Assembly (NCBI GenBank): GCA_011523365.1
Contig: WTGY01000113.1
Span: 1 to 64,000 of the forward strand
Direction of reading: 5' to 3'
DNA from: Caldilineaceae bacterium
Lineage (GTDB): Bacteria > Chloroflexota > Anaerolineae > Caldilineales > Caldilineaceae
Length of the DNA stretch: 64,000 nt
The stretch's first letter is position 1. The number at the start of each line of letters is the position of its first letter. The position numbers were made by a program, and so were the translations under genes. Of the stretch, positions 11,513-31,361 are shown in pieces. The notes beneath the pieces are model-generated. The model was not told the origin of the DNA, ran no database searches, and saw only the letters and a list, made by a program, of their open reading frames with translations.

Positions 11513-11945
11513 AGCGGTAAACAGCCCCTCATCTTTCTCAATCCACTAAGGAATGATTCGACTGCTCGTGTCCGCGGTTACGTGTCGCCGCGCCGACCAA
11601 AGTCCTGGATGGAGAAGGACCGTTCAATTACTGGCATAATTTTAACACAAGGAAAAAGCATAATGGCATGGTGATGACATACGAATTTGGTATACTTGGA
11701 CTCGGGTAATTGGGATCTTGGGTCTTACGTATGCTCCATACAGCCCCAGGGTAAGGAGTTGGGCGCGTATGGAGAAGATAATGGCAGTGACAGTTCTGGA
11801 GGCGTTCGTTCTGTCTTTCTGCGTGAGGACCGCCATACTCAACAGCGCATCCCCTGCGGCTCAACAAGCGAATGTTTGGGCCATGCGCCGGTTCGCTAGG
11901 CCTCTGGGTCTTTGGTTCGGGCCTCCAGCCAGGATGAGGGAGATC

Positions 11946-14900
11946 ATGAGCTCTGTTCTCAGAATTTCGACCGTCATGGTCGTTGTATTTGCCCTGGTTG
12001 CCGGCTTGAGAGGGCCTCGGGTGTTTGCATCGACACGTATCGCTACGGACGCCGGCACGGACAGGGAGGCGCTGGTCGCGCTCTACGAGGCCACGGACGG
12101 CGACAACTGGATAAACAACGACAACTGGTTGAGCGACGCGCCGTTCGGTAGCTGGTATGGTGTCACTACCAACGATCGCGGTCGCGTGATTGACCTGTTT
12201 CTTTCGTATAACGGCTTGAGTGGAACGATTCCAGCGGGACTGGGCAACCTTATCGACTTGAGAAAGTTGTACCTTCGGGGCAATGAGTTGAGCGGAGAGA
12301 TTCCGCCAGAACTGGGCAAGCTTGCCAGCCTGAAAGAGATGTCCCTCGCAGACAACGTGTTGCGCGGAGAGATTCCGCCAGAATTGGGTAACCTTTCCAA
12401 TTTGAGAGAGTTGACTCTCTGGGGAAACCAATTGAGCGGGTCGATTCCGCCGGAACTGGGCAGCCTCGTAAGCCTGGAAGTGCTGGACCTTTCTCTCAGT
12501 GGAGACAACAAGCTGAGCGGGTCGATTCCACCAGAGCTAGGCAACCTCGTAAGCCTGAGAGAAATGTCCCTTCCAGACAACGCGTTGAGTGGAGAGATTC
12601 CACCAGAACTGGGTAAGCTCACCAACTTGGAATCGCTGCACCTTGGGGGAAACCAGTTGAGCGGGTCGATTCCACCGGAACTGGGCAACCTCACCAACCT
12701 GCAAGAGTTATTACTCTGGGACAACGAGTTGAGCGGGTCGATTCCATCGGAACTGGGCGACCTCATCAACCTGCAAGTGCTGTCTCTCCCGAGTAACGAG
12801 TTGAGCGGGTCGATTCCGCCGGAACTTGGCAACCTCGCCAAACTGAGATCACTATACCTCTCAAGCAACGCGTTGAGCGGACAGATTCCTTCGGAACTTG
12901 GTAAGCTCAGCAGATTGGCTTTCCTGAACATTTCGGACAACCGGTTGAGCCACCCTATCCCGTCAGAATTGGGCAATCTCAATGGCCTGAGACAGCTTAA
13001 CCTTTCAGGCAATCAATTGAGTGGGTCGATTCCACCAGAACTTGGCAACCTCGCCAACCTGAAAGAGTTGTATCTTTCTGGTAACCGGCTTACCGGCGAA
13101 ATTCCGTCGGAATTGAGCAACCTCATTCATCTGGAAGGAGTCTCCCTCGCAGGCAACCAGTTACACGGCTGCATGCCAGCCGCCTGGCGCAATCTCAGAA
13201 GCTACGGCTTTTCACGGAACGACCTGGACAGAGCCGGGCTGCTCTTTTGCGTGTCCTCCTTTTCGACGCCAGCCCCCGCCGCCGAGATCGCGGCGGACAA
13301 AGCCGCGCTGGTCGCGCTCTACCAAGCCACGGACGGCAATAACTGGCTGAACCACCTTAACTGGCTTTCAGATGCGCCGATCGGCACTTGGCTCGGCGTC
13401 ACCACCGACGACAGCGGCCGCGTAATCAAACTAAGTCTTTCAAGAAACGGATTGCACGGCGCGATTCCACCGGCTTTGGGCGACCTCACGAGTTTGGAAA
13501 CGCTGGATCTTTCGGACAATCAGTTGCGTGGGGAGATTCCGCCCGAATTGGGCAACCTCACAGACCTTGAAACGCTGGATCTCTGGGACAATCAGTTACG
13601 CGGGGAGATTCCGCCCGAATTGGGCAATCTGAACAACCTAAAATCGCTGGACCTTGCGGACAACGAGCTACGCGGAGAGATCCCCGCCGTACTGGGCAAA
13701 CTCGGCCTCTCTACACTGTACTGGTTGGATCTGCGAGGCAACCGGTTGAGTGGGGAGATTGCGTTTGAACTGAGCAGCCTCGCCAACCTGAGCGGCCTGT
13801 TCCTGGAGCAGTACTCAGAGAACAATTTCACTGGCTGTATACCGGCGGCTTGGGAGGAGATCGAAGAGAGCGACGTGTTTGCTATTCCCCTGCCGTTCTG
13901 CGCAGCGTCATCTCCTACACGAACGGCCGTCGTGGAGACACTCACCCGCCCCCAAATCTTCGACAAGGTTTCGCCGGCGATTGCTTTCATTCAGACGGAA
14001 ATCGGCTCCGGCAGCGGCGTGCTGATCGAGAGGGGGTACGTGGTGACGAACGCCCATGTCGTCTGGCCCTTCGACGCAGCGCGCGTCGTCTTCCCGGATG
14101 GAACCGAGTTTGGCCAGGTGCCGGTTAAGGGCTGGGATCTATTGGCAGACCTGGCCGTGCTTGGCCCGATTGACGCTCCTGCGCAAGCTGCGACACTGCT
14201 TGACGGAGAGAGCATCCCAATTGGCTCCGACATGTATCTGGTCGGCTACCCGGGCGAATACGATCGCTTCCCACAACCAGTGATTGTGCCGGGAATTCTG
14301 TCGGGCCTGCGGCAGTGGGAGCCTGTCGGCGTCACCTACTTCCAGACGCCTGTTCCGACTGCGGGCGGGCAGAGCGGCGGCGCGCTCGTTTCTTCTACAG
14401 GCTACGTGATCGGCATCAGCGGCTTCACGATCATCGAGGGGAAATTCGTGCTTTCTGCTTCGTCTGCCGACCTCTTGCCGCGCATCCGGCAACTTATCGC
14501 CGGCGAGGATCCTTCCGGCCACGGCGAGCGGATGCTGCCCCTGGAAGGAGGCGCCCGCCGTCATGAACTCCCATTGCAAAGCTATGGGGATGTCTACATA
14601 TTCAACGAGCTGGCCGGCACGGCGATCGAAGTCGAGTTGAGCGGCGCAGACGAAGGCGGGTTCCGCGTCTTTGACTCCTATGGTTACGAAGTCACCGAGG
14701 ATGAGACCGATTCTCTTTCGTTTGAAACGGAATACAACGGGCCGCACTTTCTGGTCGTATCGAAATCGGGATCAGGCAAGTTAACGCTGATCGCGAACCG
14801 CCCGCTTACACGCTTTGACGACCCGGACGACAACCAGCGGATCCAGGTGGGACAGTCCCTTAACGGCAATATCGATTTCCCAAGGGACATCGATTTCTTT

Positions 14901-16901
14901 TCCCTGCGTTTGGAAAGGAATGAAACGGTCGAGATTGTGGCGCGGTCGGCGCTGGCTGACACTTTTCTCTCTATCTGGGATCCGATCGCGGAGGAGTGGG
15001 CCAGCGATGACGACGGCGGCGGCGGTCTGTTCGGGGAGGATGCGAGGATCATTTTCCAGGCGCCACAAACCGGGGACTACGATCTGTTCGTAGCAGACGC
15101 CACGTGGTCTGCACCAGGCGGGTATGTCATCTCCGTAAAGCAGGCCGGGGAAACGGAACCGTTGACGTCTCTGGCTTATTCAGATACCCCCACGCGCCGG
15201 GTTCCCGTGGTGTCGATCCACAACCCGCTGGTGATCCCGATTGGAGACGCGGCGGCGGTCCCGGCAGGAGACCTTTATGAATGGTTCCCGGCCGGGTATG
15301 AGCCCCCAACCGGCCCGACGGTGACGATCAACGGGACCATGAATGTGCGCGGGGGCCCGGGAACCAATTATCCTATCATCGGCGCGGCCACGGCGGGGCA
15401 GGAGTACGCCGCGCTCAGCAGAAATGCGGCCGGCGACTGGTGGCAGATCGAGTACGAAGGCAGGTTGGCATGGGTCTACGGCGGGCTTGTGATTGCGTCC
15501 GCCGATGCCGCGAACGCGCCGCAGGCGGATCGATCCGGCTGGCTGACGTATGAGGATGAAGCACGCGGTCTGTCGCTGTCTCTTCCGCCAGAATGGCGGT
15601 ATTTCGACCCCGCGAGGCCTTCCCAGGCCGATTTGGCGCTCTTTTCCGCGGCCAGAAAGGGCGATGAGGAGCAACTCGACATCGCGGAGATGGGCGCAAT
15701 GGTTTCCGCAATGAGCGCCGGCAGCGAGGATGCCGTAGTCGGACTTGGCCTCCAGGCAGATCAGGCGAATGACGCGTCGAGCAACTTCATGCTTGTCTTC
15801 TCTTTTGCGGCAGATGGACTGAGCCTGGAACGCTACGTGCAGGTGGTTGCCGACCGGCTGAAGGACAGCCATGGCGTCGAGGCGGACAGCGTCGGACTGG
15901 TTCCGGAACTCAGGCCGCTGGGCGAAGAGGCGGTGTCGATCCGCTATCGCGAGAGCGAGACGAACAGCGAAGTGTGGCAGGTCTGGCTGCTTTCCCCGGA
16001 TGAAGAGACGCTGCTGGCTCTCGCGTTCAGCGTTCACAGCGATGAGTTCGTTGCATTGGAGCCGTTGCTGCGTGAAATCGTACAGAAGGCGCAATGGGCC
16101 AATCAGCCTGCGCCCTCCTTTCCGGTCGTGACCGTCAACGGAAACATGAACGTGCGCGGTGGGCCGGGCACGATTTACCCCGTACTGGGCACGGCCAGCG
16201 CCGGTGAACAGTTTGCCATAACCGGCAAGAACTCATCCGGCGCCTGGTGGCGAATCAACTATAACGAACAGCCCGGGTGGGTCTTCAGCCAGCTGGTGAC
16301 CGCATCCGGCCCGCTGGATGACGTCCCGCTTGTGAAGGCGTATGATTGGGACGCGTTCCATGACGGCGAGCGCCGCTTATGGATCTTCTATCCGCCGGGC
16401 TGGTTTTTCTTCGACCCGACACAGCCTTCTGAGGCTGACCGGAGGAGCCTTGCCGACATGATCGGCGCGGAAAATGCGGAAGATTTTTTGCGCGACTTTT
16501 CTGCGGATATGGACAGCGAAGATATGGAAACGTTCGTTGGCTATGGCTTCGACACGCGGTGGAAGTTCGGCGGGCACATCGAGTCCACGATTCATCCGTC
16601 CGGCGGCTTGGCGTTGCGACAGTTGGTTCCGATTTTGGAGAACGGGTTGAGAGAGGCCGGGCTTGACGTGGAGAGCGCGGGCGCGGTTACAAATCTTCGT
16701 TATGACGGCGCTGAGGTGGTTTCTGTCTTCTTCCGCGACAACCGCGCCGGGTTGGATTCGAATGATATTCGCTGGCAGGTTTGGATGTTGTCCCCGGACA
16801 GAGCCTCGTTCCTTCGGATTGACTTCACTTTCCGCAGCGAGGGTCTTGCCGAACTGGTTCCGTTGCTGAGTGAAATGGTGCGCCGCATACGCTGGGAATA
16901 G
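11946..16901 (+). CDS. Secreted LRR / trypsin-like protease / PPC / SH3b multidomain protein
   Basis: A 1651-residue protein. A signal peptide (about 1-29, MSSVLRISTVMVVVFALVAG) is followed by two plant-type LRR blocks. Each block opens with an ATDGDNW/ATDGNNW cap (about 35-430 and 450-640) and has repeats of the LSGSIPPELGNL type. Next is a serine protease domain (about 668-850) with a visible triad: His in TNAHVV (about 703), Asp in LLADLAVL (about 735), Ser in GGQSGGAL (about 810). A PPC domain follows (about 955-1068, PRDIDFFSLRL, GDYDLFV). Then come two repeats of SH3b domain (about 1123-1185 and 1391-1452, MNVRGGPGT) plus a PsbP-like domain (about 1198-1385 and 1465-1651). The start at 11946 has GGGAG nearby and gives a good signal; earlier in-frame starts do not. 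No neighbours in operon. Likely cell-surface recognition and proteolysis; substrate unknown. Confidence 0.85.
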   Translation: MSSVLRISTVMVVVFALVAGLRGPRVFASTRIATDAGTDREALVALYEATDGDNWINNDNWLSDAPFGSWYGVTTNDRGRVIDLFLSYNGLSGTIPAGLGNLIDLRKLYLRGNELSGEIPPELGKLASLKEMSLADNVLRGEIPPELGNLSNLRELTLWGNQLSGSIPPELGSLVSLEVLDLSLSGDNKLSGSIPPELGNLVSLREMSLPDNALSGEIPPELGKLTNLESLHLGGNQLSGSIPPELGNLTNLQELLLWDNELSGSIPSELGDLINLQVLSLPSNELSGSIPPELGNLAKLRSLYLSSNALSGQIPSELGKLSRLAFLNISDNRLSHPIPSELGNLNGLRQLNLSGNQLSGSIPPELGNLANLKELYLSGNRLTGEIPSELSNLIHLEGVSLAGNQLHGCMPAAWRNLRSYGFSRNDLDRAGLLFCVSSFSTPAPAAEIAADKAALVALYQATDGNNWLNHLNWLSDAPIGTWLGVTTDDSGRVIKLSLSRNGLHGAIPPALGDLTSLETLDLSDNQLRGEIPPELGNLTDLETLDLWDNQLRGEIPPELGNLNNLKSLDLADNELRGEIPAVLGKLGLSTLYWLDLRGNRLSGEIAFELSSLANLSGLFLEQYSENNFTGCIPAAWEEIEESDVFAIPLPFCAASSPTRTAVVETLTRPQIFDKVSPAIAFIQTEIGSGSGVLIERGYVVTNAHVVWPFDAARVVFPDGTEFGQVPVKGWDLLADLAVLGPIDAPAQAATLLDGESIPIGSDMYLVGYPGEYDRFPQPVIVPGILSGLRQWEPVGVTYFQTPVPTAGGQSGGALVSSTGYVIGISGFTIIEGKFVLSASSADLLPRIRQLIAGEDPSGHGERMLPLEGGARRHELPLQSYGDVYIFNELAGTAIEVELSGADEGGFRVFDSYGYEVTEDETDSLSFETEYNGPHFLVVSKSGSGKLTLIANRPLTRFDDPDDNQRIQVGQSLNGNIDFPRDIDFFSLRLERNETVEIVARSALADTFLSIWDPIAEEWASDDDGGGGLFGEDARIIFQAPQTGDYDLFVADATWSAPGGYVISVKQAGETEPLTSLAYSDTPTRRVPVVSIHNPLVIPIGDAAAVPAGDLYEWFPAGYEPPTGPTVTINGTMNVRGGPGTNYPIIGAATAGQEYAALSRNAAGDWWQIEYEGRLAWVYGGLVIASADAANAPQADRSGWLTYEDEARGLSLSLPPEWRYFDPARPSQADLALFSAARKGDEEQLDIAEMGAMVSAMSAGSEDAVVGLGLQADQANDASSNFMLVFSFAADGLSLERYVQVVADRLKDSHGVEADSVGLVPELRPLGEEAVSIRYRESETNSEVWQVWLLSPDEETLLALAFSVHSDEFVALEPLLREIVQKAQWANQPAPSFPVVTVNGNMNVRGGPGTIYPVLGTASAGEQFAITGKNSSGAWWRINYNEQPGWVFSQLVTASGPLDDVPLVKAYDWDAFHDGERRLWIFYPPGWFFFDPTQPSEADRRSLADMIGAENAEDFLRDFSADMDSEDMETFVGYGFDTRWKFGGHIESTIHPSGGLALRQLVPILENGLREAGLDVESAGAVTNLRYDGAEVVSVFFRDNRAGLDSNDIRWQVWMLSPDRASFLRIDFTFRSEGLAELVPLLSEMVRRIRWE

Positions 16902-19889: not shown

Positions 19890-21035
19890 ATGGACAAAGC
19901 GAATAGACCACACACGGCAATACCGCTGGAGGTAGTCACCAAGGTCCCGGTACGGAGGCTGGCGCTGGACCGCCTGAATCCTCGCTTGTTTCTCAGCGGT
20001 GCGGAACCAACTGAGGTGGAAATAATCGCGCGGCTCTATCGTTCTGAAGATTTGAGCGAATTGCTCCAATCGATAGCGGCGAACGGTTATCTTGATATTG
20101 AACCTCTTGTCGTCCTCAAAGAGGAGGAGAACCTGACCGTCCTTGAAGGCAATCGCCGTTTAGCGGCCATTCGTCTCTTCGAGGAACCTGACCTCCCGGT
20201 GCAGATTCGTCGACAAACGGGTCTTAAAGTCACCATTCCTTCTTTGCCTGAGGAATTCCGCGGCACGCTTCAGGAGGTTTCGGTTTACCGAGTAGAAAGC
20301 CGTGAGGATGCCAGGGCCTTTATTGGATTCAAACACATTAACGGCGCCGCCAGATGGGAGTCTTACGCAAAGGCGAAATATGCTGCTGACTGGTACAAGA
20401 GGGGGGGTACCTCTCTTGAAGTCATAGCATCCCAAATTGGCGACAGGCATGACACCATTAAGCGGATGGTAAATGCAATCTATGTGCTAGAGCAGGCGGA
20501 ACGGGCTGGAATCTTTCACCTCTCGGATCGGGTAAGTCCGCGATTCAACTTCTCACATCTTTACACGGCCTTGTCCCGCTCGACATACATGCGTTTTCTC
20601 GGTCTGAAGGAGGCATGGACCCGGTTCCATCCCGAACCGGATCCCGTCCCTCAAGAAAAGCTGGAAAGCTTAGGCAAGGTGTTACGGTGGCTGTATGGAT
20701 CAAAAGAAGAGGGTGTTGATCCGGTAATACACTCTCAGAACCCTGACATCCGGCTCTTGGGAGAAGTCCTTGAGAGCCCCGAGGCGCTCTTGATTCTGAA
20801 GGGTTCGGGTTCCCTTACAGAAGCGCATTTGAGCACAGTCCCAGCGAACCAAATGTTTCTTGAATCATTGGTACGAGCAAGAAGGGAAGTACGTGAGGCA
20901 TCAAATAACCTTCGTGGATTTGACGGTCAGGATCAGGCTCTGATTGGAATCGCGGAGGATATTTCCGAAACGGCTCAAGCAATGCTCGCTCGAATGATCA
21001 GGAAGATGAAAGACGTAGAGGCCGACGAAGCGTGA
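19890..21035 (+). CDS. ParB/Srx-like nuclease-fold protein
   Basis: A 381-residue protein with an N-terminal ParB-like domain: VPVRRLALDRLNPRLF (about 20-34), IAANGYLDIEPLVVL (62-76), and the ParB box LTVLEGNRRLAAIRLFEE (82-99) with E-G-N-R-R in place of the usual G-E-R-R. A helix-turn-helix-like stretch follows (about 165-200, LEVIASQIGDRHDTIKRMVN). The C-terminal half is helical and unassigned. The start at 19890 has GGAGGAG nine bases upstream. The stop overlaps the next start by four bases (ATGA), so the three genes 19890-23121 are translationally coupled. ParB-like proteins outside par loci can be nucleases, CTP switches or DNA-binding adaptors. Here the company of a nuclease-like protein and a methylase points to a defence role; that is inference. 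Confidence 0.75.
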   Translation: MDKANRPHTAIPLEVVTKVPVRRLALDRLNPRLFLSGAEPTEVEIIARLYRSEDLSELLQSIAANGYLDIEPLVVLKEEENLTVLEGNRRLAAIRLFEEPDLPVQIRRQTGLKVTIPSLPEEFRGTLQEVSVYRVESREDARAFIGFKHINGAARWESYAKAKYAADWYKRGGTSLEVIASQIGDRHDTIKRMVNAIYVLEQAERAGIFHLSDRVSPRFNFSHLYTALSRSTYMRFLGLKEAWTRFHPEPDPVPQEKLESLGKVLRWLYGSKEEGVDPVIHSQNPDIRLLGEVLESPEALLILKGSGSLTEAHLSTVPANQMFLESLVRARREVREASNNLRGFDGQDQALIGIAEDISETAQAMLARMIRKMKDVEADEA

Positions 21036-22036
21036 AACCAGTCCTCTATTTTCCCTCCGACGAGTTTGCCGCCGGCAAGTCTATCGATATTGACATTGCG
21101 GCCGACTATTTGGAACTGAGCGCTCTTTTTTCCAGGGAAAGTCAGTCATTTAGCGAAGACATCGTCAATGCGCTGGAACTCGCAGCCGACGCGGAATACG
21201 ATGACGTTGAAGACGAAGTCAAGAATCGGGAGGAAGTTGCAGCGGGAGCGGTTGCCCGCATGGCATCTCGGAAACGAGCCCTGGCGACATCTTATCCATT
21301 TGACATCGACGACAACGGAGACGTCATCTTCTATACGGGCGAAAAGACGGATCTGGGTCATACCGCTTATCTTGTGTCGCTGATTTTATCCAATTTGAAA
21401 GGGGTATCCCCTCTATTAGTGGGCAGCGACGTGCATCCCACAGAAGAGGAGGTCAGTCGCCTGCGCAGGTACTTTCAATACTTGGCGACCGCCGCTATTG
21501 CAGCGGAGGTTGGTGGACCCGCCTGGTCTTTTGGCTTTCCCCGGCCTGACGGAACAGGTTTCTTGCCGAAGCTCTGTGAAATATGGGTATCATTAAGGGA
21601 CGGATATGTGGGCGCCGACCCTTCTGCGCCTGCCGACCCCAAAGACGATAAGATAGACATTTTTGCTTGGCGCGAGCAAAAGGATGGCCTGCCAGGGTTT
21701 CTTTTGCTGGCAGCCCAAGTTGCTACGGGCCGCGACTGGAAGGAAAAATCCCTCAAAAGTCATGTTGGTGGTGTGTTTCAACAGCGCTGGTTCAGCCGCC
21801 GCGCTCCTGTTACTGCTATGGTTGCTTATCATGTGATTCCATTTGCGCGACCCGATGAAAAGTTTCGCGATGACGTACTGATGCTGGGCAATGTGTTACA
21901 TCGCCTTCGGGTTCCATTTAGGGTTAGAGAGGCGACCAGTCTTGTCTCCAACGGCGTAGAGGTGGAAGCGTTCGAATTGCTCGACCATGCCTCCGAGTGG
22001 ATCCACTCCTACGTGACGAGGACGAGACCAACATGA
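21032..22036 (+). CDS. Putative PD-(D/E)XK-type nuclease, middle gene of the ParB-methylase operon
   Basis: A 334-residue protein. The only family-like signal I see is at about 205-240: DDKIDIFAWREQKDG, then GFLLLAAQVATGRDWKEKSL. A conserved Asp, a hydrophobic strand and Q-x-A-T-G plus Lys fit the PD-(D/E)XK variant in which Gln replaces the acidic residue. The N-terminal part is acidic and helical (SEDIVNALELAADAEYDDVE). It overlaps the ParB-like gene by four bases upstream and the methyltransferase start by four bases downstream. In this setting it is the best candidate for the cutting subunit. Without a search the nuclease call stays tentative; a structural adaptor is the alternative. Confidence 0.6.
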   Translation: MKPVLYFPSDEFAAGKSIDIDIAADYLELSALFSRESQSFSEDIVNALELAADAEYDDVEDEVKNREEVAAGAVARMASRKRALATSYPFDIDDNGDVIFYTGEKTDLGHTAYLVSLILSNLKGVSPLLVGSDVHPTEEEVSRLRRYFQYLATAAIAAEVGGPAWSFGFPRPDGTGFLPKLCEIWVSLRDGYVGADPSAPADPKDDKIDIFAWREQKDGLPGFLLLAAQVATGRDWKEKSLKSHVGGVFQQRWFSRRAPVTAMVAYHVIPFARPDEKFRDDVLMLGNVLHRLRVPFRVREATSLVSNGVEVEAFELLDHASEWIHSYVTRTRPT

Positions 22037-23121
22037 GACATCGATTTCATTCAATTTGCCCTTATTTTGCTACGTTCCCTGAGACTTTCGTAGAAAAGCA
22101 CCTTGCTGCGTCCAATCTGAATGGTGTGGTATTTGATCCGTTTTGTGGGCGGGGCACAACGGTTTTCGAAAGCCTTATAAGGGGACGGCGGGGTGCTGGA
22201 TGCGATATCAACCCAGTGGCTGCTTGTATTGCGGGGGCCAAGTGCGATCCGCCGGCGCTTCCTGAGCTGCTAGAGCGGTTATCGCTCTTGGAAAAGGAGA
22301 GCATTCACTATCATTCCAACGCCAGCGCAGGAGACCTCACGGAGTTTTTTTCTCTCTGTTTTGCGCCTGAGACGTATGACCAGATACTCTTTCTGAGAGA
22401 TTCGCTCAATTGGCACACTGACCGAATTGATCGTTTTGTTGCAGCACTTTCCTTAGGGGCACTGCATGGCGAGTCCCATCGCAGCCCTAACTACTTCAGT
22501 AACCGTATGCCGAGAACGATAAGTACCAATCCGGCATACTCGGTTCGATGGTGGCGGGATAACGGTTACACCGCGCCTGTCAGGGATGTGTTTTCGATTC
22601 TCAGAAACATGAGCCATTACCGCTTTGTGTCGGCACCGCCTGCGTTTCGAGGGGAGATCGCATTGTCCGACGCTCGCAAGGCCGCTGAGAGTTTTCCACA
22701 CTTGCTCGGACAGATCACAGATGTGATTACTTCGCCCCCTTACCTAAACACAACGAGCTACCGTGAAGATCAGTGGCTGCGATTATGGTTTCTTGGCGAG
22801 GATGTTGAGAATCCTGTACGGGACGATGGACGTCATCATAGCGTCAAGAAATACAAGGAGTTCCTAGAAGAATCCTGGGCAGGTGTGACTCCGCTTCTGG
22901 CAGATGAAGTGCGAATTGTTGTGAGAATTGGAGGTCGCAAGCTACCCAAAGAGGAAGCGTTTGAATTCCTCGATTCTGTCCTGAAGCGGGCAACGCAGAG
23001 AAGTGTTCAAATTCAGGGTGAGGGGGTATCTTCATTGGTTCGAAACACTCAAGCGAATGCCTTCCTCGGTTCGAAGCCTTCCCCCACCAATGAGCATGAC
23101 TTTTGCTTTCTTTTGCATTAG
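22033..23121 (+). CDS. DNA methyltransferase (N6-adenine/N4-cytosine type)
   Basis: A 362-residue amino-methyltransferase. The SAM-binding motif is VVFDPFCGRGTTVFESLIRG (about 32-51), preceded by a motif X-like start (CPYFATFPETFVEKHL). The catalytic motif is TSPPYLNTTSY (about 233-243); the S-P-P-Y form is typical of N4-cytosine enzymes but is also seen in some N6-adenine ones. About 190 residues lie between the two motifs, enough for an inserted target-recognition domain. It starts inside the stop of the previous gene (ATGA overlap), so expression is coupled to the nuclease-like protein, as expected for a modification enzyme guarding self DNA. No frameshift seen. The stop is followed by 285 bases without a strong gene. 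Confidence 0.85.
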   Translation: MRHRFHSICPYFATFPETFVEKHLAASNLNGVVFDPFCGRGTTVFESLIRGRRGAGCDINPVAACIAGAKCDPPALPELLERLSLLEKESIHYHSNASAGDLTEFFSLCFAPETYDQILFLRDSLNWHTDRIDRFVAALSLGALHGESHRSPNYFSNRMPRTISTNPAYSVRWWRDNGYTAPVRDVFSILRNMSHYRFVSAPPAFRGEIALSDARKAAESFPHLLGQITDVITSPPYLNTTSYREDQWLRLWFLGEDVENPVRDDGRHHSVKKYKEFLEESWAGVTPLLADEVRIVVRIGGRKLPKEEAFEFLDSVLKRATQRSVQIQGEGVSSLVRNTQANAFLGSKPSPTNEHDFCFLLH

Positions 23122-25703: not shown

Positions 25704-26762
25704 TTAGCCATCTGCATTAAGTGAGACAATTGCCCAAACTTCAGCGTCACCGCGCCTCCTTGCCTCAACAAAGATTTCTCCAGAGCCGATAGGCCCTCCT
25801 GAGCTCGTCTCCCAGGCGTCAAGGGCCTCTGTTCCTTGTTTGGCCTCCCCCCGTACGTCATGGAACCCAAGATTCACGATACTGGATTCTGGGACCCGCA
25901 TGTTTGGGTGGAATCTTGTCGCCAGGTCTTTTGCTAAAGGGCTGGATGAGCCCTGTAACACTCTCAGCTTAGCTTCAGGGGTTTCTTCGGGAAAAAAGGA
26001 CATCTGGGGATTGTTCAGTCTTCGCATTTCGGAGGCATTCAGTCCCATTCCACATTGCAAAAACCAAGCAGGAAAGGGAATGTGCCGCAGGCAAGCGCTT
26101 GTTGTGGCTTCGCGGCTAGCGTCCGGTGCGATTCGTTCGCGTACCCTGTCAATTACATCAAATGTGAGTCGTCCCTCTCTTGTATACTCTTCTCTCACGA
26201 TGGGCTCAAACATATCAGGGTAGAACGCTAAAACAGCCGCCACTCGATCTACCAAGATTTCCGCGGGTTCGGGCCGGTTTTCTTTTGTACGGCGAAAGGC
26301 GAAGGCCAATTGTTGACCTTCGAGCAGGAGATGGACGATCTCATGCCACGTGGTGAAGTACCGACGGTAGGCATGCCAGTCCTGGCAGTTAATGATGGCC
26401 CAGTACGCACGGTCCCAAGGCTTGGGGTCCAGGCGGCGCATGATAATGGCATCTGTGTCCCCGCCGAATTCGGTCTTCAGCTCGCCAATGGCGGCCTTTT
26501 GGACAGGTGCGACCTTGTCTAGAACGGCATCAATTTCGGCTTCAGTGCGCACCTCGGTGATCAGCAGGTCCAATGACGCGGCAAATCCGTTCGCTAGTTC
26601 GCTTAGGGTCTCAGGTGTGCCATGCGCAACCACCCAGGCGCGCAGGCGTGCAAGACAATGTTCAATGATCATGCCTTCGACGTTGTCGCTTCGACCTAGG
26701 CCCAATTCCTCGGCGACGCGATTAAGCTCTAACTTGTAATCACTGTTCCAATCCCTATTCAC
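25704..26762 (-). CDS. capP: ImmA/IrrE-type zinc metallopeptidase, CapP-like CBASS regulator
   Basis: A 352-residue protein with the zinc-peptidase motif H-E-I-V-H (about residues 140-144, inside RRYFTTWHEIVHLLLEGQQL). It is the second gene after a HTH repressor and divergent from a CBASS operon. This matches the described CapH-CapP pair, in which CapP cleaves the repressor CapH after DNA damage and releases CBASS transcription. The start is a GTG at 26762 with GGAGGAACCGGA upstream; it overlaps the capH stop by four bases (GTGA). An acidic residue downstream for the third zinc ligand is likely in EPAEILVDR (about 165-173). The role is inferred from motif plus position. Confidence 0.75.
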   Translation of the reverse strand: MNRDWNSDYKLELNRVAEELGLGRSDNVEGMIIEHCLARLRAWVVAHGTPETLSELANGFAASLDLLITEVRTEAEIDAVLDKVAPVQKAAIGELKTEFGGDTDAIIMRRLDPKPWDRAYWAIINCQDWHAYRRYFTTWHEIVHLLLEGQQLAFAFRRTKENRPEPAEILVDRVAAVLAFYPDMFEPIVREEYTREGRLTFDVIDRVRERIAPDASREATTSACLRHIPFPAWFLQCGMGLNASEMRRLNNPQMSFFPEETPEAKLRVLQGSSSPLAKDLATRFHPNMRVPESSIVNLGFHDVRGEAKQGTEALDAWETSSGGPIGSGEIFVEARRRGDAEVWAIVSLNADG

Positions 26763-27187
26763 TCCGGTTCCTCCAAGAACTGTCTTACTGCCAGATAAAG
26801 GGCCCGCCATTCTTCTTTGCCCTTCGTGCCGCGGGGTCCGCCGCCGCGCCGGGCGACAATTGAGTGTTCGATTTCGAGAATGGTCATCATCTGTCGGTAT
26901 GTCAATCCTTCTTCCTCGGCGAGTTCGCCAAGACTCCGAGGGACCTCAACCGACGGCAGCTCGTATTCCGCTGGTGCTGCCCCTCCCCTGAGGAGAAATT
27001 CCACCGACGCATTCAGAGCATCGGCCAATTGGAGTAGCCGCCGGCCGCTGATGTCGGAGCGATCTTGTTCTACTTCCCATAGGAAACTCTTCGACAGCCC
27101 CGCGCGCTCTGCCAACGCTTCTAAGGTGAGGCCCATCTGGGTACGTATGTAATTGACCCTCTGGCCCACAGTGTTCAGCGACGGCAT
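26759..27187 (-). CDS. capH: XRE-family HTH repressor, CapH-like CBASS regulator
   Basis: A 142-residue protein with an N-terminal Cro/CI-type helix-turn-helix (about 8-65: QRVNYIRTQMGLTLEALAER, AGLSKSFLWEVEQDR, RRLLQLADALNASVEFLL). A linker and a C-terminal helical domain (about 80-142) would carry dimerisation and the CapP cleavage site. Its start is 296 bases from the CBASS CD-NTase gene, transcribed away from it. An AT-rich inverted repeat lies 28 bases upstream of its start. The layout fits a repressor that controls both its own operon and CBASS. The alternative is a general phage-type repressor-peptidase pair that happens to be adjacent. Confidence 0.75.
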   Translation of the reverse strand: MPSLNTVGQRVNYIRTQMGLTLEALAERAGLSKSFLWEVEQDRSDISGRRLLQLADALNASVEFLLRGGAAPAEYELPSVEVPRSLGELAEEEGLTYRQMMTILEIEHSIVARRGGGPRGTKGKEEWRALYLAVRQFLEEPE

Positions 27188-27214
27188 GTATAACTCTTTT
27201 GTTTCTCGATTTGG

Positions 27215-27253
27215 CTTTCCTATATATCGGATTTATACTTATATACAGGAAAG
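27215..27253. promoter_or_regulatory. Inverted-repeat operator between capH and CBASS
   Basis: CTTTCCTATATAT (27215-27227) faces ATATACAGGAAAG (27241-27253), 12 of 13 positions pairing around a 13-base spacer. It sits in the only AT-rich patch between the divergent genes and is the obvious CapH site. Confidence 0.7.
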
Positions 27254-27438
27254 TCTAACTGTGCCATTCTGGGTTCTATACTACTGCCCAAATTCGGCAA
27301 ATGCAAGGCGTTTCGTAGCTCAGGGGTAGGTTTGTGGTCTCAATTTTATCTGGCTGCTTTGGGATTCTATCGCGGGACCTGCGCTTGGCAGACCGAAATT
27401 CGCAAACGGTGTAGCAGCCGTAGCAAAGGAGATTTGAA

Positions 27439-27486
27439 ATGAATGTAGGGGAACTGACACAGGCGCGGGAGGAGAAATCTAAATGA
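27439..27486 (+). CDS. 15-residue leader peptide coupled to the CD-NTase gene
   Basis: ATG at 27439 with AAAGGAG eight bases upstream encodes MNVGELTQAREEKSK. Its TGA overlaps the ATG of the CD-NTase gene (ATGA at 27483-27486), and a GGGAGGAG site lies inside it. This looks like translational coupling, or a start missed by one: it could also be a fortuitous frame. Confidence 0.4.
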   Translation: MNVGELTQAREEKSK

Positions 27487-28454
27487 ACGACCCGTTCATA
27501 GCTCACTCCGATATTCGTTCCTTCGCCGAAACACGCGTGAATCTCCCATCGGATTCCGCACGACGGTATCGGGAACAAGTGAACCGCTTACGAGAGAGTC
27601 TTGCAAAACACATCGCGGACAACCCTGGTTTCGCGCTGGTCAAAATGCTTCATGCCGGAAGTGTTGCTAAGGGGACTGCTCTTCGTACTATCAACGATCT
27701 TGACGCCGCCGTATACGTAAAGAAAGACCAATCCCCTGTTGACGAGAGAGAGTTGGTGCCTTGGGTGGCGGACTGCCTCCGCGAAGCATACCCTCAAAAG
27801 GATCCGAGCGATTTCAGTACGGACTCACCGCATTGTGTGACTATTCACTTCAGGGGAAGTGACCTGGATGTCGATGTCGTCCCTGTCCTCTACGAGGGAG
27901 ATGAGAACGACTATGGATACCTTGTAGATAAATATACAGGCGAAAGGCTTCTAACCAGCGTCCCTCTCCATCTTGAGTTTATTCGCAAGCGCAAAGCTGC
28001 CAACCAGACACACTTTGCCCAAGTAGTGCGTTTAGTCAAGTGGTGGGCTAGTCAACGCAAAGCGGAGAACTCTGCATTCAAGTGCAAGTCTTTCCTTTTG
28101 GAGCTTCTGATCGCTTACCTGGCGGATAAAGGTACCGGCTTGAAGGATTACCCCCAAGCTCTTGAGGCTTTTTTCAGCTACATAGTGAAGACAGGCCTTG
28201 AAGAGCGTGTATCATTCCCCGATTACTATTCGCCTAGTGGTCTACCAGGTCCTACTGGGGCCGCCATCGAAGTCTTCGATCCAGTCAACGCTGAAAACAA
28301 CGTGACCGACAAATACACATTGTCTGATCGTCAGGCGCTTGTCGAAGTCGCGGAAGAGGCGGCAGACGCCATTCGAGAAGCTTTCTACGCCACAACCAAG
28401 GGGCGTGCAGTGGAATTATGGCAGGTTGTTCTTGGACCATCTTTCAGAGGATAA
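27483..28454 (+). CDS. CBASS CD-NTase (cGAS/DncV-like nucleotidyltransferase)
   Basis: A 323-residue nucleotidyltransferase, the signal generator of CBASS. It makes a cyclic oligonucleotide when phage infection is sensed. The active-site pattern is clear: G-S (59-60) in LHAGSVAKGTALRTINDLDA, with D72 and D74 in the D-x-D, and the third Asp in GSDLDVDVVPV (D129/D131). The OAS-like helical half follows (VVRLVKWWASQRKAENSAFK; SFLLELLIAYLA). It is full length. The start at 27483 has GGGAGGAG upstream. First gene of a four-gene operon with HORMA, TRIP13 and Cap4 genes (type III CBASS). I do not assign a clade or a product. Confidence 0.9.
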   Translation: MNDPFIAHSDIRSFAETRVNLPSDSARRYREQVNRLRESLAKHIADNPGFALVKMLHAGSVAKGTALRTINDLDAAVYVKKDQSPVDERELVPWVADCLREAYPQKDPSDFSTDSPHCVTIHFRGSDLDVDVVPVLYEGDENDYGYLVDKYTGERLLTSVPLHLEFIRKRKAANQTHFAQVVRLVKWWASQRKAENSAFKCKSFLLELLIAYLADKGTGLKDYPQALEAFFSYIVKTGLEERVSFPDYYSPSGLPGPTGAAIEVFDPVNAENNVTDKYTLSDRQALVEVAEEAADAIREAFYATTKGRAVELWQVVLGPSFRG

Positions 28455-28460
28455 CAAAAT

Positions 28461-28964
28461 ATGACGAACACGTTCACTACCAGCACCACTTTCACTAGGA
28501 CAAATGCGGAGTATCTTGCTTCGAAGGTGGTGTCGGATCTCCGAGGCATGAAGGCCTACTATTATCGGCCGGATGAATCCCTGATATGGGACTACTATGA
28601 AGAGTTGGCCGAACTCCTCTCTGAAGGCTATGTGGCAAGTGTGGAGTATGGCTTCAAGCGAAATGGGCAGAGAGTCGTTACGCTGTTCTATGAAATTCGA
28701 ACGGACGGTTCGCTCGCTGATGGGAAGTCTGGAGGTGTTTACGCGAGGGCGGACATATTGGGAACTACGTGGTTCTCCTTCCTAGAGTACAGCAGGAAGT
28801 GGAGTTCCTTGACTTCTGACGCTCAACAGGAGATTGAAGCGAACCTTCCAATCCAACGTAGTTATGGTCAGGCACCCCAAGACGGCAGCGGCTACTGGGT
28901 TACAGACCGGAGTTACTCCTCACAAGGTGTAGGTACACAGCGCCGTACTTTCCGTCCCTACTAG
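28461..28964 (+). CDS. cap7: CBASS HORMA-domain protein (Cap7-like)
   Basis: A 167-residue bacterial HORMA protein: TFTRTNAEYLASKVVSDLRG (about 10-29), then YRPDESLIWDYYEELAELLS and VASVEYGFKRNGQRVVTLFY (about 58-77), the conserved family core. In type III CBASS the HORMA protein binds and switches on the CD-NTase, probably after binding a phage peptide through its closing safety-belt loop. The C-terminal tail is Gly/Ser/Arg-rich (SYSSQGVGTQRRTFRPY). Starts six bases after the CD-NTase stop. Confidence 0.85.
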   Translation: MTNTFTTSTTFTRTNAEYLASKVVSDLRGMKAYYYRPDESLIWDYYEELAELLSEGYVASVEYGFKRNGQRVVTLFYEIRTDGSLADGKSGGVYARADILGTTWFSFLEYSRKWSSLTSDAQQEIEANLPIQRSYGQAPQDGSGYWVTDRSYSSQGVGTQRRTFRPY

Positions 28965-28974
28965 GTGTTTCTTT

Positions 28975-29910
28975 ATGACCTCATTGGACCTGTTCGACGA
29001 CGTAAAGGAGCTGCCTGACACGGACGCGGCTCAACAGTTTGCCCGGCTGGTTGGACTAGATCGTTTGAAGGAACTCCTGCTGAAGGAAGTACGCCTCCTG
29101 CTCGTTCCAGGACTTCTCGAACAATGGAGTATGGATAGGCACGGCAGTGTGTTGCCATGTATAGAAGACTTCAATCGGAGACCGCCGCTGTTAGTGTTTT
29201 CTGGAGATGTGGGCACTGGAAAGACAACCCTTGCTAACAGTTTCGGTGATCCTATTGCACGAGGGGGAGACATAGCAAGGGTTACAGTTCTTCGTTTGAG
29301 CCTCATCACTCGTGGCAGAGGAGCTGTCGGCGAGATGACCCGTTTGATTTCGCAAGCATTCGATGAAGTGGGTGCATTGGCTCGGAAGGGGGTCAATGCC
29401 AACGGTAAGCCCTCTTCGGCGGTCGTATTCGTGATAGATGAGGCTGACGCGCTTGCAGAGACGCGGGCCACTGAACAAATGCACCACGAGGATCGAGCGG
29501 GAGTCAATGCCCTTATCAGGGGCATAGATCAACTCACGCAGGAGCGTTTGCCTGCCCTGGTGGTACTTTGCACAAATCGTCCCGAATCGCTTGATCCGGC
29601 AGTCCTGCGTCGGGCGGCAGTACATTATGAATTCAAGCGGCCAAGCAAAGAACAGAGGGAATCGCTCTTACGCGAGGCTTTCGTTAATGTCTTCAGCGAC
29701 AGCCAATACCGTGAATTGGCAAGACTGACCGGGCCAAATGGAAGAGATTACGGCTACACCTTTTCTGATGTGATCCAGCGCTTCATACCTGGCATTGTCC
29801 GCGACGCCTTCCCAGATAAGGAAGTGACCTTTGAACTCGCCCTATCAGTACTTGAGCAAGTAGAGCCCACCCAGCCGTTTGGCATCACAGATGGTGTACG
29901 GAAATTATGA
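28975..29910 (+). CDS. cap6: TRIP13/Pch2-like AAA+ ATPase of CBASS (Cap6-like)
   Basis: A 311-residue AAA+ ATPase with Walker A GDVGTGKTT (77-85), Walker B AVVFVIDEADAL (149-160) and a sensor-1-like VVLCTNRPESLDPAVLRRAA. TRIP13-like remodellers open HORMA proteins and so switch off the CD-NTase in type III CBASS. It lies ten bases after the HORMA gene, as expected, and its stop overlaps the start of the effector gene by four bases (ATGA). Confidence 0.9.
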   Translation: MTSLDLFDDVKELPDTDAAQQFARLVGLDRLKELLLKEVRLLLVPGLLEQWSMDRHGSVLPCIEDFNRRPPLLVFSGDVGTGKTTLANSFGDPIARGGDIARVTVLRLSLITRGRGAVGEMTRLISQAFDEVGALARKGVNANGKPSSAVVFVIDEADALAETRATEQMHHEDRAGVNALIRGIDQLTQERLPALVVLCTNRPESLDPAVLRRAAVHYEFKRPSKEQRESLLREAFVNVFSDSQYRELARLTGPNGRDYGYTFSDVIQRFIPGIVRDAFPDKEVTFELALSVLEQVEPTQPFGITDGVRKL

Positions 29911-31361
29911 CAAAACGACTAAGCGCAAGCGGTGCCCGCATCAGAGGCGACGACTATCAGCATCTGTTCGCATGGCTTCAGGTGATCAGGGCAATTCAGG
30001 TAGGGAGCGGCATCACCGAAATCGGAATAGAAGATCCCGAAGCAGGCAATGCAGATGACGTTACTGTCTACACGGAAGACCAAGAACACGAATACTATCA
30101 AGTAAAGTCTTCAGTCGATGCACGGGAGACCATCGGATTAGAATGGCTCATGAAGCCGAGCAGATCAGGTGGGCCAAGCGTAGTCCAAGGGTTCCACAGA
30201 CTGTGGGCGGATGGCCCGAAGCAATGTAAACCAAAGTTATTCCTGGTCACTAACCGCCTCGTCACAGATGGAGATCCGATCTTGAAAATGAGAGACGGGC
30301 GCGATGGTACCGTCGTACGTTCCTTGAAACGCGCACGCCCTACGTCAAACGCTGGCATTGCGCGCAAGACACTCGCTGAACATCTCCAGGTTTGTGAGAA
30401 GGAGGTGCTATTTTTTCTTGAGAACCTTTGTTTTAAACTCGGTAAGACCCATAACGACTGGATAGAGATGGCGATACCATATATGTTCGCAGCAGGTCTC
30501 CGCCATGATGAAGATGCGGTTTCTCAAGGCATAGGAATCGTGCGAGGCTGGGTAACCGAAGGCGTGAGGAAACTCACCACCGCCGAATTGCGTCAAGCGG
30601 TAGAGCCACTAAATCGCCCTAGCGATCTTCCGGCAGCTTCGCTTCTTGTCCAGGCCATTGACCGGGACCCCATGCCGGAGGCCGCTACGATTGCTCTTGA
30701 CTGGGCCAGTCTGTTTCCGGGGAGGGAGCCAAGAGAACGCCGTCTGCCAACAGACAGAGCGATGTGGAACGACCGTTTCCGGCCAGAACTCCAACAAGCA
30801 GTGAAGGACTTAAGAGCCTTGGGACACAATAACGTTCTCGTCCGAGGGTACATGCGGTTACCTACATGGTTTGCTACAGGAGTAGAGCTGGGCAAAACTG
30901 CTGACTTTCAGGTTGCGTCATTTCAGGGTCAGGCACCTTGGTCATCAGAAGGAGCGTTATCTGCCATCGCTATCGAGCGTATCGATAAAGACCTGGGAAG
31001 TGGCGATGATCTTGCCATAGGGATTGCGTTGGCATTTGACCTCTCGACAGATGTGCTGGCATACCTTCACGAACAACAAATCAATGTCGGTGAATATGTA
31101 TGTCTCCGTCCTGCAGGCGGTGCAAATAACCAGGCAATCCGTAACGACGCTGAGGCTAGACAATGGGCTTATGAGGTACGGGACTTGATTCGACGTCTCG
31201 TTCAGGAATATAGACCCAGCCGAATTCATCTCTTCTTGGCGGGGCCGCGTGGAGCGATACTCCTACTAGGCCACCTGTGGGACCGTATGCCGACAACTCA
31301 GCTATATGAGGACCTAGGGCCCACCAAAGGGTATAGCCCGTCGTACCTGATTCCGAACTGA
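29907..31361 (+). CDS. cap4: CBASS effector Cap4: nuclease domain plus SAVED sensor domain
   Basis: A 484-residue effector. The N-terminus (about 8-220) is a Cap4/DUF4297-type PD-(D/E)XK nuclease: GARIRGDDYQHLFAWLQVIR, Asp at about 50-51 (NADDVTVY), then E-Y-Y-Q-V-K (62-67). The C-terminus (about 290-480) is a SAVED domain, which binds the cyclic oligonucleotide: VGEYVCLRPAGG, RRLVQEYRPSRIHLFLAGPR and YEDLGPTKGYSPSYLI are typical. When the signal is bound the enzyme oligomerises and degrades DNA, ending the infected cell. Start overlaps the TRIP13 stop. The last gene of the operon; the next gene is on the other strand. Confidence 0.88.
   Translation: MTKRLSASGARIRGDDYQHLFAWLQVIRAIQVGSGITEIGIEDPEAGNADDVTVYTEDQEHEYYQVKSSVDARETIGLEWLMKPSRSGGPSVVQGFHRLWADGPKQCKPKLFLVTNRLVTDGDPILKMRDGRDGTVVRSLKRARPTSNAGIARKTLAEHLQVCEKEVLFFLENLCFKLGKTHNDWIEMAIPYMFAAGLRHDEDAVSQGIGIVRGWVTEGVRKLTTAELRQAVEPLNRPSDLPAASLLVQAIDRDPMPEAATIALDWASLFPGREPRERRLPTDRAMWNDRFRPELQQAVKDLRALGHNNVLVRGYMRLPTWFATGVELGKTADFQVASFQGQAPWSSEGALSAIAIERIDKDLGSGDDLAIGIALAFDLSTDVLAYLHEQQINVGEYVCLRPAGGANNQAIRNDAEARQWAYEVRDLIRRLVQEYRPSRIHLFLAGPRGAILLLGHLWDRMPTTQLYEDLGPTKGYSPSYLIPN

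What the first reader, a model, noticed from the sequence alone, without database searches (positions are those of the whole stretch)
19890..23121. Three-gene coupled module: ParB-like, PD-(D/E)XK-like, DNA methyltransferase
Both junctions are ATGA overlaps, so the three proteins are made together. A ParB-like nuclease-fold protein, a nuclease-like protein with D...QVATG...K, and an amino-methyltransferase form a restriction-like set that matches no R-M type I can name. It lies next to CBASS and an ISP enzyme in a defence island. I consider it the best candidate in the window for an undescribed system.
Basis: partly seen in the sequence, partly recalled or inferred. Interest (0 to 1): 0.72.

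Follow-up and report, generated by a model that had tools for sequence, protein, structure and literature searches.

The report
ParB-guided restriction system with exchangeable methylases
The three overlapping genes belong to a widespread, undescribed set, carried mostly by prophages, in which a ParB-like DNA-binding switch and a nuclease always travel together and are paired with a DNA methylase of one of three unrelated classes; it looks like a new kind of restriction-modification defence against phages, though nobody has tested it.

Summary
Three genes overlap at 19890-23121, but only the second junction is ATGA; the first is GTGA. A (381 aa) models as a ParB/KorB-type protein: NTP-binding ParB fold with an intact GNRR box plus a helix-turn-helix. 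B (334 aa) matches no Pfam, NCBIfam or PADLOC family, but models confidently (pTM 0.90); its solved-structure matches are mostly PD-(D/E)XK nucleases. D209 is invariant, and all 63 homologues keep a lysine at one of two alternative positions. C is an N6_N4-type methylase with an SPPY motif.

The pair A-B is conserved. In 72 of 72 complete A-B loci from viral contigs, B directly follows A and a DNA methylase lies alongside. Its class varies: 28 C5, 27 D12 (Dam-like) and 5 N6_N4 among 60 checked by Pfam. The set occupies the old/tin defence hotspot of P2-like phages, including phage Wphi of the laboratory strain E. coli W.

The nearest catalogued system is PD-Lambda-5, which shares A's ParB part and a D12 methylase but has no B. 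I read this as a new restriction-modification-like architecture: the methylase marks self, and A-B recognises and cuts unmarked DNA. Defence, cleavage and NTP use are inferred, not shown.

The parts
19890..21035 (+). Gene A: ParB/KorB-like protein, 381 aa (ParB/Srx NTP-binding domain, helix-turn-helix, C-terminal helices)
   Evidence: model pLDDT 90.8; best solved matches KorB Z 10.1, ParB 8.8, Noc 8.6 over residues about 15-302
20148..20159 (+). GNRR (residues 87-90 of A): Box II / phosphate motif of the ParB fold
   Evidence: E86, G87, N88, R89, R90 invariant in 45 homologues; the GxxR motif binds NTP phosphates in ParB-fold proteins (PMC12704722)
20415..20507 (+). helix-turn-helix region of A (residues 176-206)
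   Evidence: model secondary structure; alignment to the KorB/ParB/Noc DNA-binding domains
21032..22036 (+). Gene B: PD-(D/E)XK-type nuclease, 334 aa, GTG start overlapping A (GTGA)
   Evidence: no Pfam/NCBIfam/PADLOC family
21656..21658 (+). D209, predicted metal-binding aspartate of B
   Evidence: invariant in 48 of 48 homologues
21716..21718 (+). Q229, position of D/E (here Q) in the (D/E)XK motif of B
   Evidence: 47 of 48 homologues
21746..21748 (+). K239, predicted migrated catalytic lysine of B
   Evidence: all 63 homologues have K at 239 (56), at 231 in QxK (6) or at both (1)
22033..23121 (+). Gene C: N6_N4-type DNA methyltransferase, 362 aa, ATGA overlap with B
   Evidence: PF01555 E 1.1e-13; DPFCGRGT and TSPPY motifs
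22135..22158 (+). motif I DPFCGRGT of C (SAM binding)
22732..22743 (+). motif IV SPPY of C (catalytic)
   Evidence: present in all six members checked (window, L010, L015, L041, L065, L082)

Best explanation
This is a restriction-modification-like anti-phage system with a three-part design. C methylates its recognition site in the host chromosome and so marks self. A, a ParB/KorB-type NTP switch with a helix-turn-helix, is the DNA-recognition and sensing subunit: it binds the same unmethylated site, or senses lack of marking, and loads on DNA, probably as an NTP-gated clamp. B, a PD-(D/E)XK-type nuclease without a recognisable motor domain, is recruited or licensed by A and cuts the unmarked DNA. 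The conserved core is A-B; the methylase is an exchangeable module (C5, D12 adenine or N6_N4 type). Shown here: gene set, co-occurrence, methylase exchange, predicted folds, conserved catalytic positions, hotspot location. Inferred: defence, methylation-dependent cleavage, A-B complex, NTP gating, the site shared by A-B and C.
For: B directly follows A in 72 viral-contig loci found by searching with A alone, and all 72 carry an adjacent DNA methylase: 70 by motif within 1.5 kb, and L045 and L091 by reading the sequence. Methylase-like genes are rare elsewhere in the same loci: 11 in 575 kb. Pfam confirms 28 C5, 27 D12 and 5 N6_N4 methylases in 60 loci checked. Methylase class follows the A tree (7 changes against 26.8 shuffled) yet switches several times, as expected if A must match its methylase. 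B models with pLDDT 88.4 and pTM 0.90, core helix 138-160 and strands 210-215, 223-230, 264-268; solved matches are mostly PD-(D/E)XK nucleases (BsmI, MspJI, PaqCI, SdaI, FokI, AF1548, AspBHI, HindIII; Z 5.0-6.5). Every homologue keeps one of two catalytic-lysine positions. A resembles KorB/ParB/Noc including the DNA-binding domain and keeps the NTP motif. In P2-like phages the set lies between replication endonuclease and portal genes, a hotspot holding old, tin and other tested defence systems (PMC9122126, PMC9519451). The window copy lies in a defence island with CBASS and a restriction-methylase. PD-Lambda-5, which shares A's ParB part and a D12 methylase, protects E. coli against most phages tested.
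Against: No activity has been measured. Individual structure matches for B are below Z 8 and Foldseek E-values are weak (best 2e-3), so the nuclease fold rests on their agreement plus the motif. The lysine migration is a single event on the tree. One A-B pair (Persicobacter plasmid, L040) has no adjacent methylase and no C5 methylase on its 404 kb plasmid; its chromosome was not available. L019 shows none either, but its contig is 4.7 kb. The recognition site, and that A-B and C share it, is unknown. In most loci the methylase is convergent, not co-transcribed.
Confidence: 0.62

Rival explanations
1. Abortive version (PD-Lambda-5-like): A senses infection or loss of methylation and B then degrades host as well as phage DNA, killing the cell; the methylase acts as the antidote that keeps the switch off.
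For: PD-Lambda-5, which shares A's ParB part and a D12 methylase, was described as a compacted RM+Abi system (PMC9519451). A is shared while the effector differs, so A looks like a sensor that can be wired to different killers.
Against: B resembles restriction nucleases, and strict pairing with a DNA methylase suits direct restriction at least as well. Nothing computed here separates the two.
Confidence: 0.2
2. Selfish addiction or stability module of phages and plasmids: A-B cut DNA that lost the methylase mark, killing cells that lose the element; phage defence is a side effect.
For: Strict linkage of nuclease and methylase on mobile elements; classical type II RM genes can behave this way (own knowledge).
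Against: Also found in bacterial genomes and in defence islands, and inside larger RM-like Z1 islands that already have nucleases.
Confidence: 0.08
3. Modification-dependent nuclease: B, whose best folds include MspJI and AspBHI, cuts foreign modified DNA, and the neighbouring methylase has a separate role.
For: MspJI ranks first in Foldseek and second by VIA-align; AspBHI is also listed. Mrr-type QxK in some members.
Against: An own methylase beside nearly every copy would create targets for such an enzyme. Methylase class follows the A tree, which a separate role does not explain.
Confidence: 0.07
4. Partition or anti-restriction cargo: A is a ParB partition protein and C protects phage DNA from host enzymes; B is accessory.
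For: A is annotated in databases as ParB/RepB/Spo0J family partition protein; phage methylases often protect phage DNA (PMC3091744).
Against: No ParA partner was annotated or read next to A in the loci examined. B keeps a nuclease active site in all members and always accompanies A. Copies outside phages exist.
Confidence: 0.03

Closest known systems
PD-Lambda-5 (Vassallo et al. 2022, PMC9519451; PADLOC PD-Lambda-5_A/B)
   Same: A matches the ParB and helix-turn-helix part of PD-Lambda-5_A (profile comparison 99.9 % over columns 14-242). Its partner PD-Lambda-5_B is a D12 methylase like that in 27 of 60 loci here. Both are found in prophages.
   Different: PD-Lambda-5_A is one 450-500 aa protein whose C-terminal half is unrelated to B (probability 0.1 %). 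There is no separate nuclease gene. C5 and N6_N4 methylases are not part of it. The window set has no D12 methylase.
Type II restriction-modification
   Same: One methylase plus one PD-(D/E)XK nuclease, no motor ATPase.
   Different: A third protein of ParB type with its own helix-turn-helix; nuclease family not in PADLOC or Pfam; one nuclease family paired with three unrelated methylase classes.
ParB / KorB / Noc CTP-dependent DNA clamps
   Same: Fold of A over residues 15-302 including the DNA-binding domain; GNRR box.
   Different: No ParA partner gene; operon with nuclease and methylase. Whether A binds CTP, ATP or nothing is unknown; PMC12704722 reports that this cannot be predicted from sequence.
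ParB-methylase fusions and GmrSD-type ParB-HNH proteins (PMC12704722, PMC5512222, PMC12839542)
   Same: ParB-fold domains combined with methylase or nuclease functions in conflict systems.
   Different: Those are fusions of other domain families; none is described with B or this three-gene set.
Z1 / MORC / DUF262 islands with C5 methylase (L147 with L036, L148 with L037, L151 with L039)
   Same: A-B sits downstream of such islands in three loci, so it also associates there with a C5 methylase.
   Different: In the other loci A-B stands with one methylase and without Z1 or MORC ATPases.

Membership tests
PD-Lambda-5 | PD-Lambda-5_A, full length (about 450-500 aa, ParB part plus its own C-terminal half) | tested here: not met
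   A matches only residues 17-170 to profile 5-163 of 466; true members L113 and L117 match most of the profile; B is not the missing half
PD-Lambda-5 | PD-Lambda-5_B, D12 adenine methylase next to A | tested here: not met
   C is N6_N4 type. In 27 sister loci the methylase is D12, and the one scanned against PADLOC (L130) hits PD-Lambda-5_B at 4.6e-94
Type II restriction-modification | site-specific DNA methylase with intact motifs | tested here: inconclusive
   motifs I and IV present; activity and site not testable here
Type II restriction-modification | cognate endonuclease acting on the same site | not testable with these tools
   B has a PD-(D/E)XK-type fold and motif; specificity unknown
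Type II restriction-modification | B belongs to a catalogued restriction endonuclease family | tested here: not met
   no PADLOC, Pfam or NCBIfam hit for B
PD-(D/E)XK nuclease superfamily (protein B) | alpha-beta core with D and (D/E/Q)xK or equivalent lysine | tested here: met
   moderate Z scores, so fold assignment rests on agreement of matches plus motif
ParB/KorB/Noc fold (protein A) | ParB NTP-binding domain with GxxR and helix-turn-helix DNA-binding domain | tested here: met
ParABS partition system | adjacent parA and parS sites | tested here: not met
   no ParA gene annotated or read beside A in the loci examined; parS not tested
Type I, III or ISP restriction systems | helicase or translocase motor in the set | tested here: not met
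   A, B and C carry no helicase domain

The most novel reading that the evidence does not exclude
A restriction system in which a ParB-type NTP-gated DNA clamp, rather than a target-recognition domain or a motor, finds unmethylated sites and hands the DNA to a separate nuclease, and in which one nuclease-clamp core has been paired repeatedly with methylases of unrelated chemistry.
Probability: 0.33. Interest if true: 0.87.

Novelty: new variant of a known kind. Interest (0 to 1): 0.7.

Why it matters
If right, this adds a restriction-modification architecture that is common in prophages and present in E. coli W and its phage Wphi, yet filed today as a partition protein, a hypothetical protein and a lone methylase. 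It would be a role for the ParB switch fold in immunity, would show a nuclease core accepting methylases of three classes, and would explain many apparently orphan prophage methylases. Some PD-Lambda-5 calls made by PADLOC-type searches in D12 loci may really be this system.

Tried and rejected
Pfam, NCBIfam, PADLOC and PDB sequence searches with B gave no family. That B is the C-terminal half of PD-Lambda-5_A: rejected. That PADLOC candidate PDC-M38A (715 aa) is an A-B fusion: rejected, its C-terminal half matches proteins that read as OLD/AAA-type ATPases (by reading, not Pfam-tested). That the 'putative plasmid partitioning system' reported in about a quarter of P2-like phages (PMC9122126) is this set: not claimed, since ParB-DUF3850 fusions beside ParA (PMC12704722) are the likelier cause. 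Promoter and terminator scans were no better than shuffles. Literature searches for a described ParB plus nuclease plus methylase system found none in the held library; preprints and most subscription papers are not held, and the supplementary tables of the two P2-hotspot papers could not be read.

Full report
Observation. The window is a contig of a Caldilineaceae (Chloroflexota) metagenome genome, judged by its closest relatives L010 and L011 (B 86 % identical). Gene A is 19890-21035, gene B 21032-22036, gene C 22033-23121, all on the + strand.

What the proteins are. A hits ParB_N weakly and an unknown-function PHROG strongly (phrog_3694, 4e-79). An AlphaFold model from 45 aligned homologues (pLDDT 90.8) matches KorB (Z 10.1), ParB (8.8) and Noc (8.6) across residues about 15-302, that is the ParB/sulfiredoxin NTP domain plus the helix-turn-helix. 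E86, G87, N88, R89 and R90 are invariant. The GxxR motif contacts NTP phosphates in this fold, and different members bind CTP, ATP or GTP (PMC12704722), so A is probably an NTP-binding DNA-associated switch; its nucleotide is unknown. B has no Pfam, NCBIfam, PADLOC or PDB sequence relative; PHROGs 14650 and 3984, both of unknown function, contain it. Its model (pLDDT 88.4, pTM 0.90) has an alpha-beta core whose matches among solved structures are mostly PD-(D/E)XK nucleases at Z 5.0-6.5; no single match is strong. In support, D209 is invariant, Q229 nearly so, and across 63 family members a lysine is always present either at position 239 (W-x-x-K) or at 231 (QxK): 56 have the first only, 6 the second only, 1 both, none neither. 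This is one event on the tree, so it is a constraint argument rather than a statistical one. C is an N6_N4-family methylase with DPFCGRGT and TSPPY; SPPY is more usual for N4-cytosine methylases (own knowledge), so m4C is a guess.

Co-occurrence. Homologues of B in other Chloroflexota and on plasmids of Vibrio, Mesorhizobium, Neorhizobium and Persicobacter are preceded by A; in the Microvirga plasmid hit (L014) B is split into two frames and no A was found. In plasmids, a search with A of L018 returned four records, the same four found with the neighbouring B. A search of viral contigs with A alone returned 80 loci. In 72 both A and B are complete and adjacent; of the other eight, three end within or just after A and five carry distant 450-500 aa relatives without B. 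All 72 have a DNA methylase beside A-B: 70 by motif within 1.5 kb, plus L045 (upstream) and L091 (cut at the contig end) by reading. Methylase-like genes elsewhere in the same loci number 11 in 575 kb. Hmmscan of 60 of these methylases, from viral, Chloroflexota and plasmid loci, gives 28 C5, 27 D12 and 5 N6_N4. On a tree of A the class needs 7 changes against 26.8 for shuffled labels, and N6_N4 appears in several separate places: the methylase is inherited with A for long periods but has been replaced repeatedly. In most viral loci the methylase is convergent with A-B; in the window and the other N6_N4 loci it is co-directional. In three loci A-B stands behind a Z1 island that itself carries a C5 methylase. 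Exceptions: L040 (no methylase nearby, no C5 methylase on the plasmid), L019 (short contig) and L016 (B truncated after about 59 residues, no methylase read).

Location. In E. coli and its P2-like phages the set lies between the portal gene and the replication endonuclease: phage Wphi gp98-gp96-mth, E. coli W, E. coli A134_1EC and phage 12474III. C5 and D12 forms occupy the same site in different strains. This is the locus of old and tin, and two studies found many defence systems there (PMC9122126, PMC9519451). In Pseudomonas phage D14A the set lies elsewhere, near tail genes. In the window it lies near a CBASS operon (cyclase, HORMA, TRIP13, endonuclease effector) and an ISP-like restriction-methylase.

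How it most likely works. The simplest reading is restriction-modification: C marks self; A, with its own DNA-binding domain and NTP pocket, recognises unmarked DNA; B cuts. Exchange of methylase class suits a core that reads the state of a site through A, and the co-inheritance of A and methylase suits matching of the two. The alternative that unmarked or invaded DNA triggers suicide is the main rival (0.20), because PD-Lambda-5, which shares the A sensor, was proposed to be RM plus Abi.

Relation to known systems. PADLOC's PD-Lambda-5_A matches A only in the ParB part; profile comparison gives 99.9 % over A columns 14-242 and 0.1 % for B. PD-Lambda-5_B is a D12 methylase, and the E. coli D12 methylase of this set hits it at 4.6e-94, so present detectors may confuse the two. 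I therefore do not file the set as PD-Lambda-5 but as a sister architecture. I found no paper in the held library that describes it.

Verdict. A real, widespread, conserved and apparently undescribed restriction-like system; the mechanism is inferred from anatomy. Confidence in the restriction-modification reading 0.62.

Noticed in passing
window 25704-31361: CBASS operon: oligonucleotide cyclase (4e-122), HORMA, TRIP13 and a SAVED/PD-DEXK-type endonuclease effector (3e-141), preceded on the other strand by weak CapP-like and CapH-like regulators.
   Followed up: partly
window 32152-37293, minus strand: 1713 aa restriction enzyme-methyltransferase (type IIG / ISP-like by PADLOC, 3.6e-97), next to the CBASS operon.
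   Followed up: partly
L016 / L012 (1-1460): A relative of the same genus has an intact A, but B breaks off after about 59 residues and no methylase was read nearby: a decayed copy.
   Followed up: partly
L147 with L036, L148 with L037, L151 with L039: A-B appended to Z1 islands: C5 methylase, Z1 ATPase and a PD-(D/E)XK protein, plus a HATPase/MORC-like gene and Vsr-like gene in L148, a MutY-like glycosylase gene in L036, and DUF262 in L151.
   Followed up: partly
L135, L136, L138: PADLOC candidate PDC-M38A (715 aa profile) combines an A-like ParB part (positions 57-199) with a C-terminal half that matches proteins reading as OLD/AAA-type ATPases, so the ParB part may be a sensor shared by several effectors.
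   Followed up: partly
L113, L117, L115, L120: PD-Lambda-5_A-type loci beside D12 methylases; PADLOC-style searches may mislabel D12 forms of the A-B set as PD-Lambda-5.
   Followed up: partly
window 11718-16901: 1727 aa protein with two blocks of leucine-rich repeats, a trypsin-like protease-like segment and SH3-like repeats (by reading the translation).
   Followed up: no
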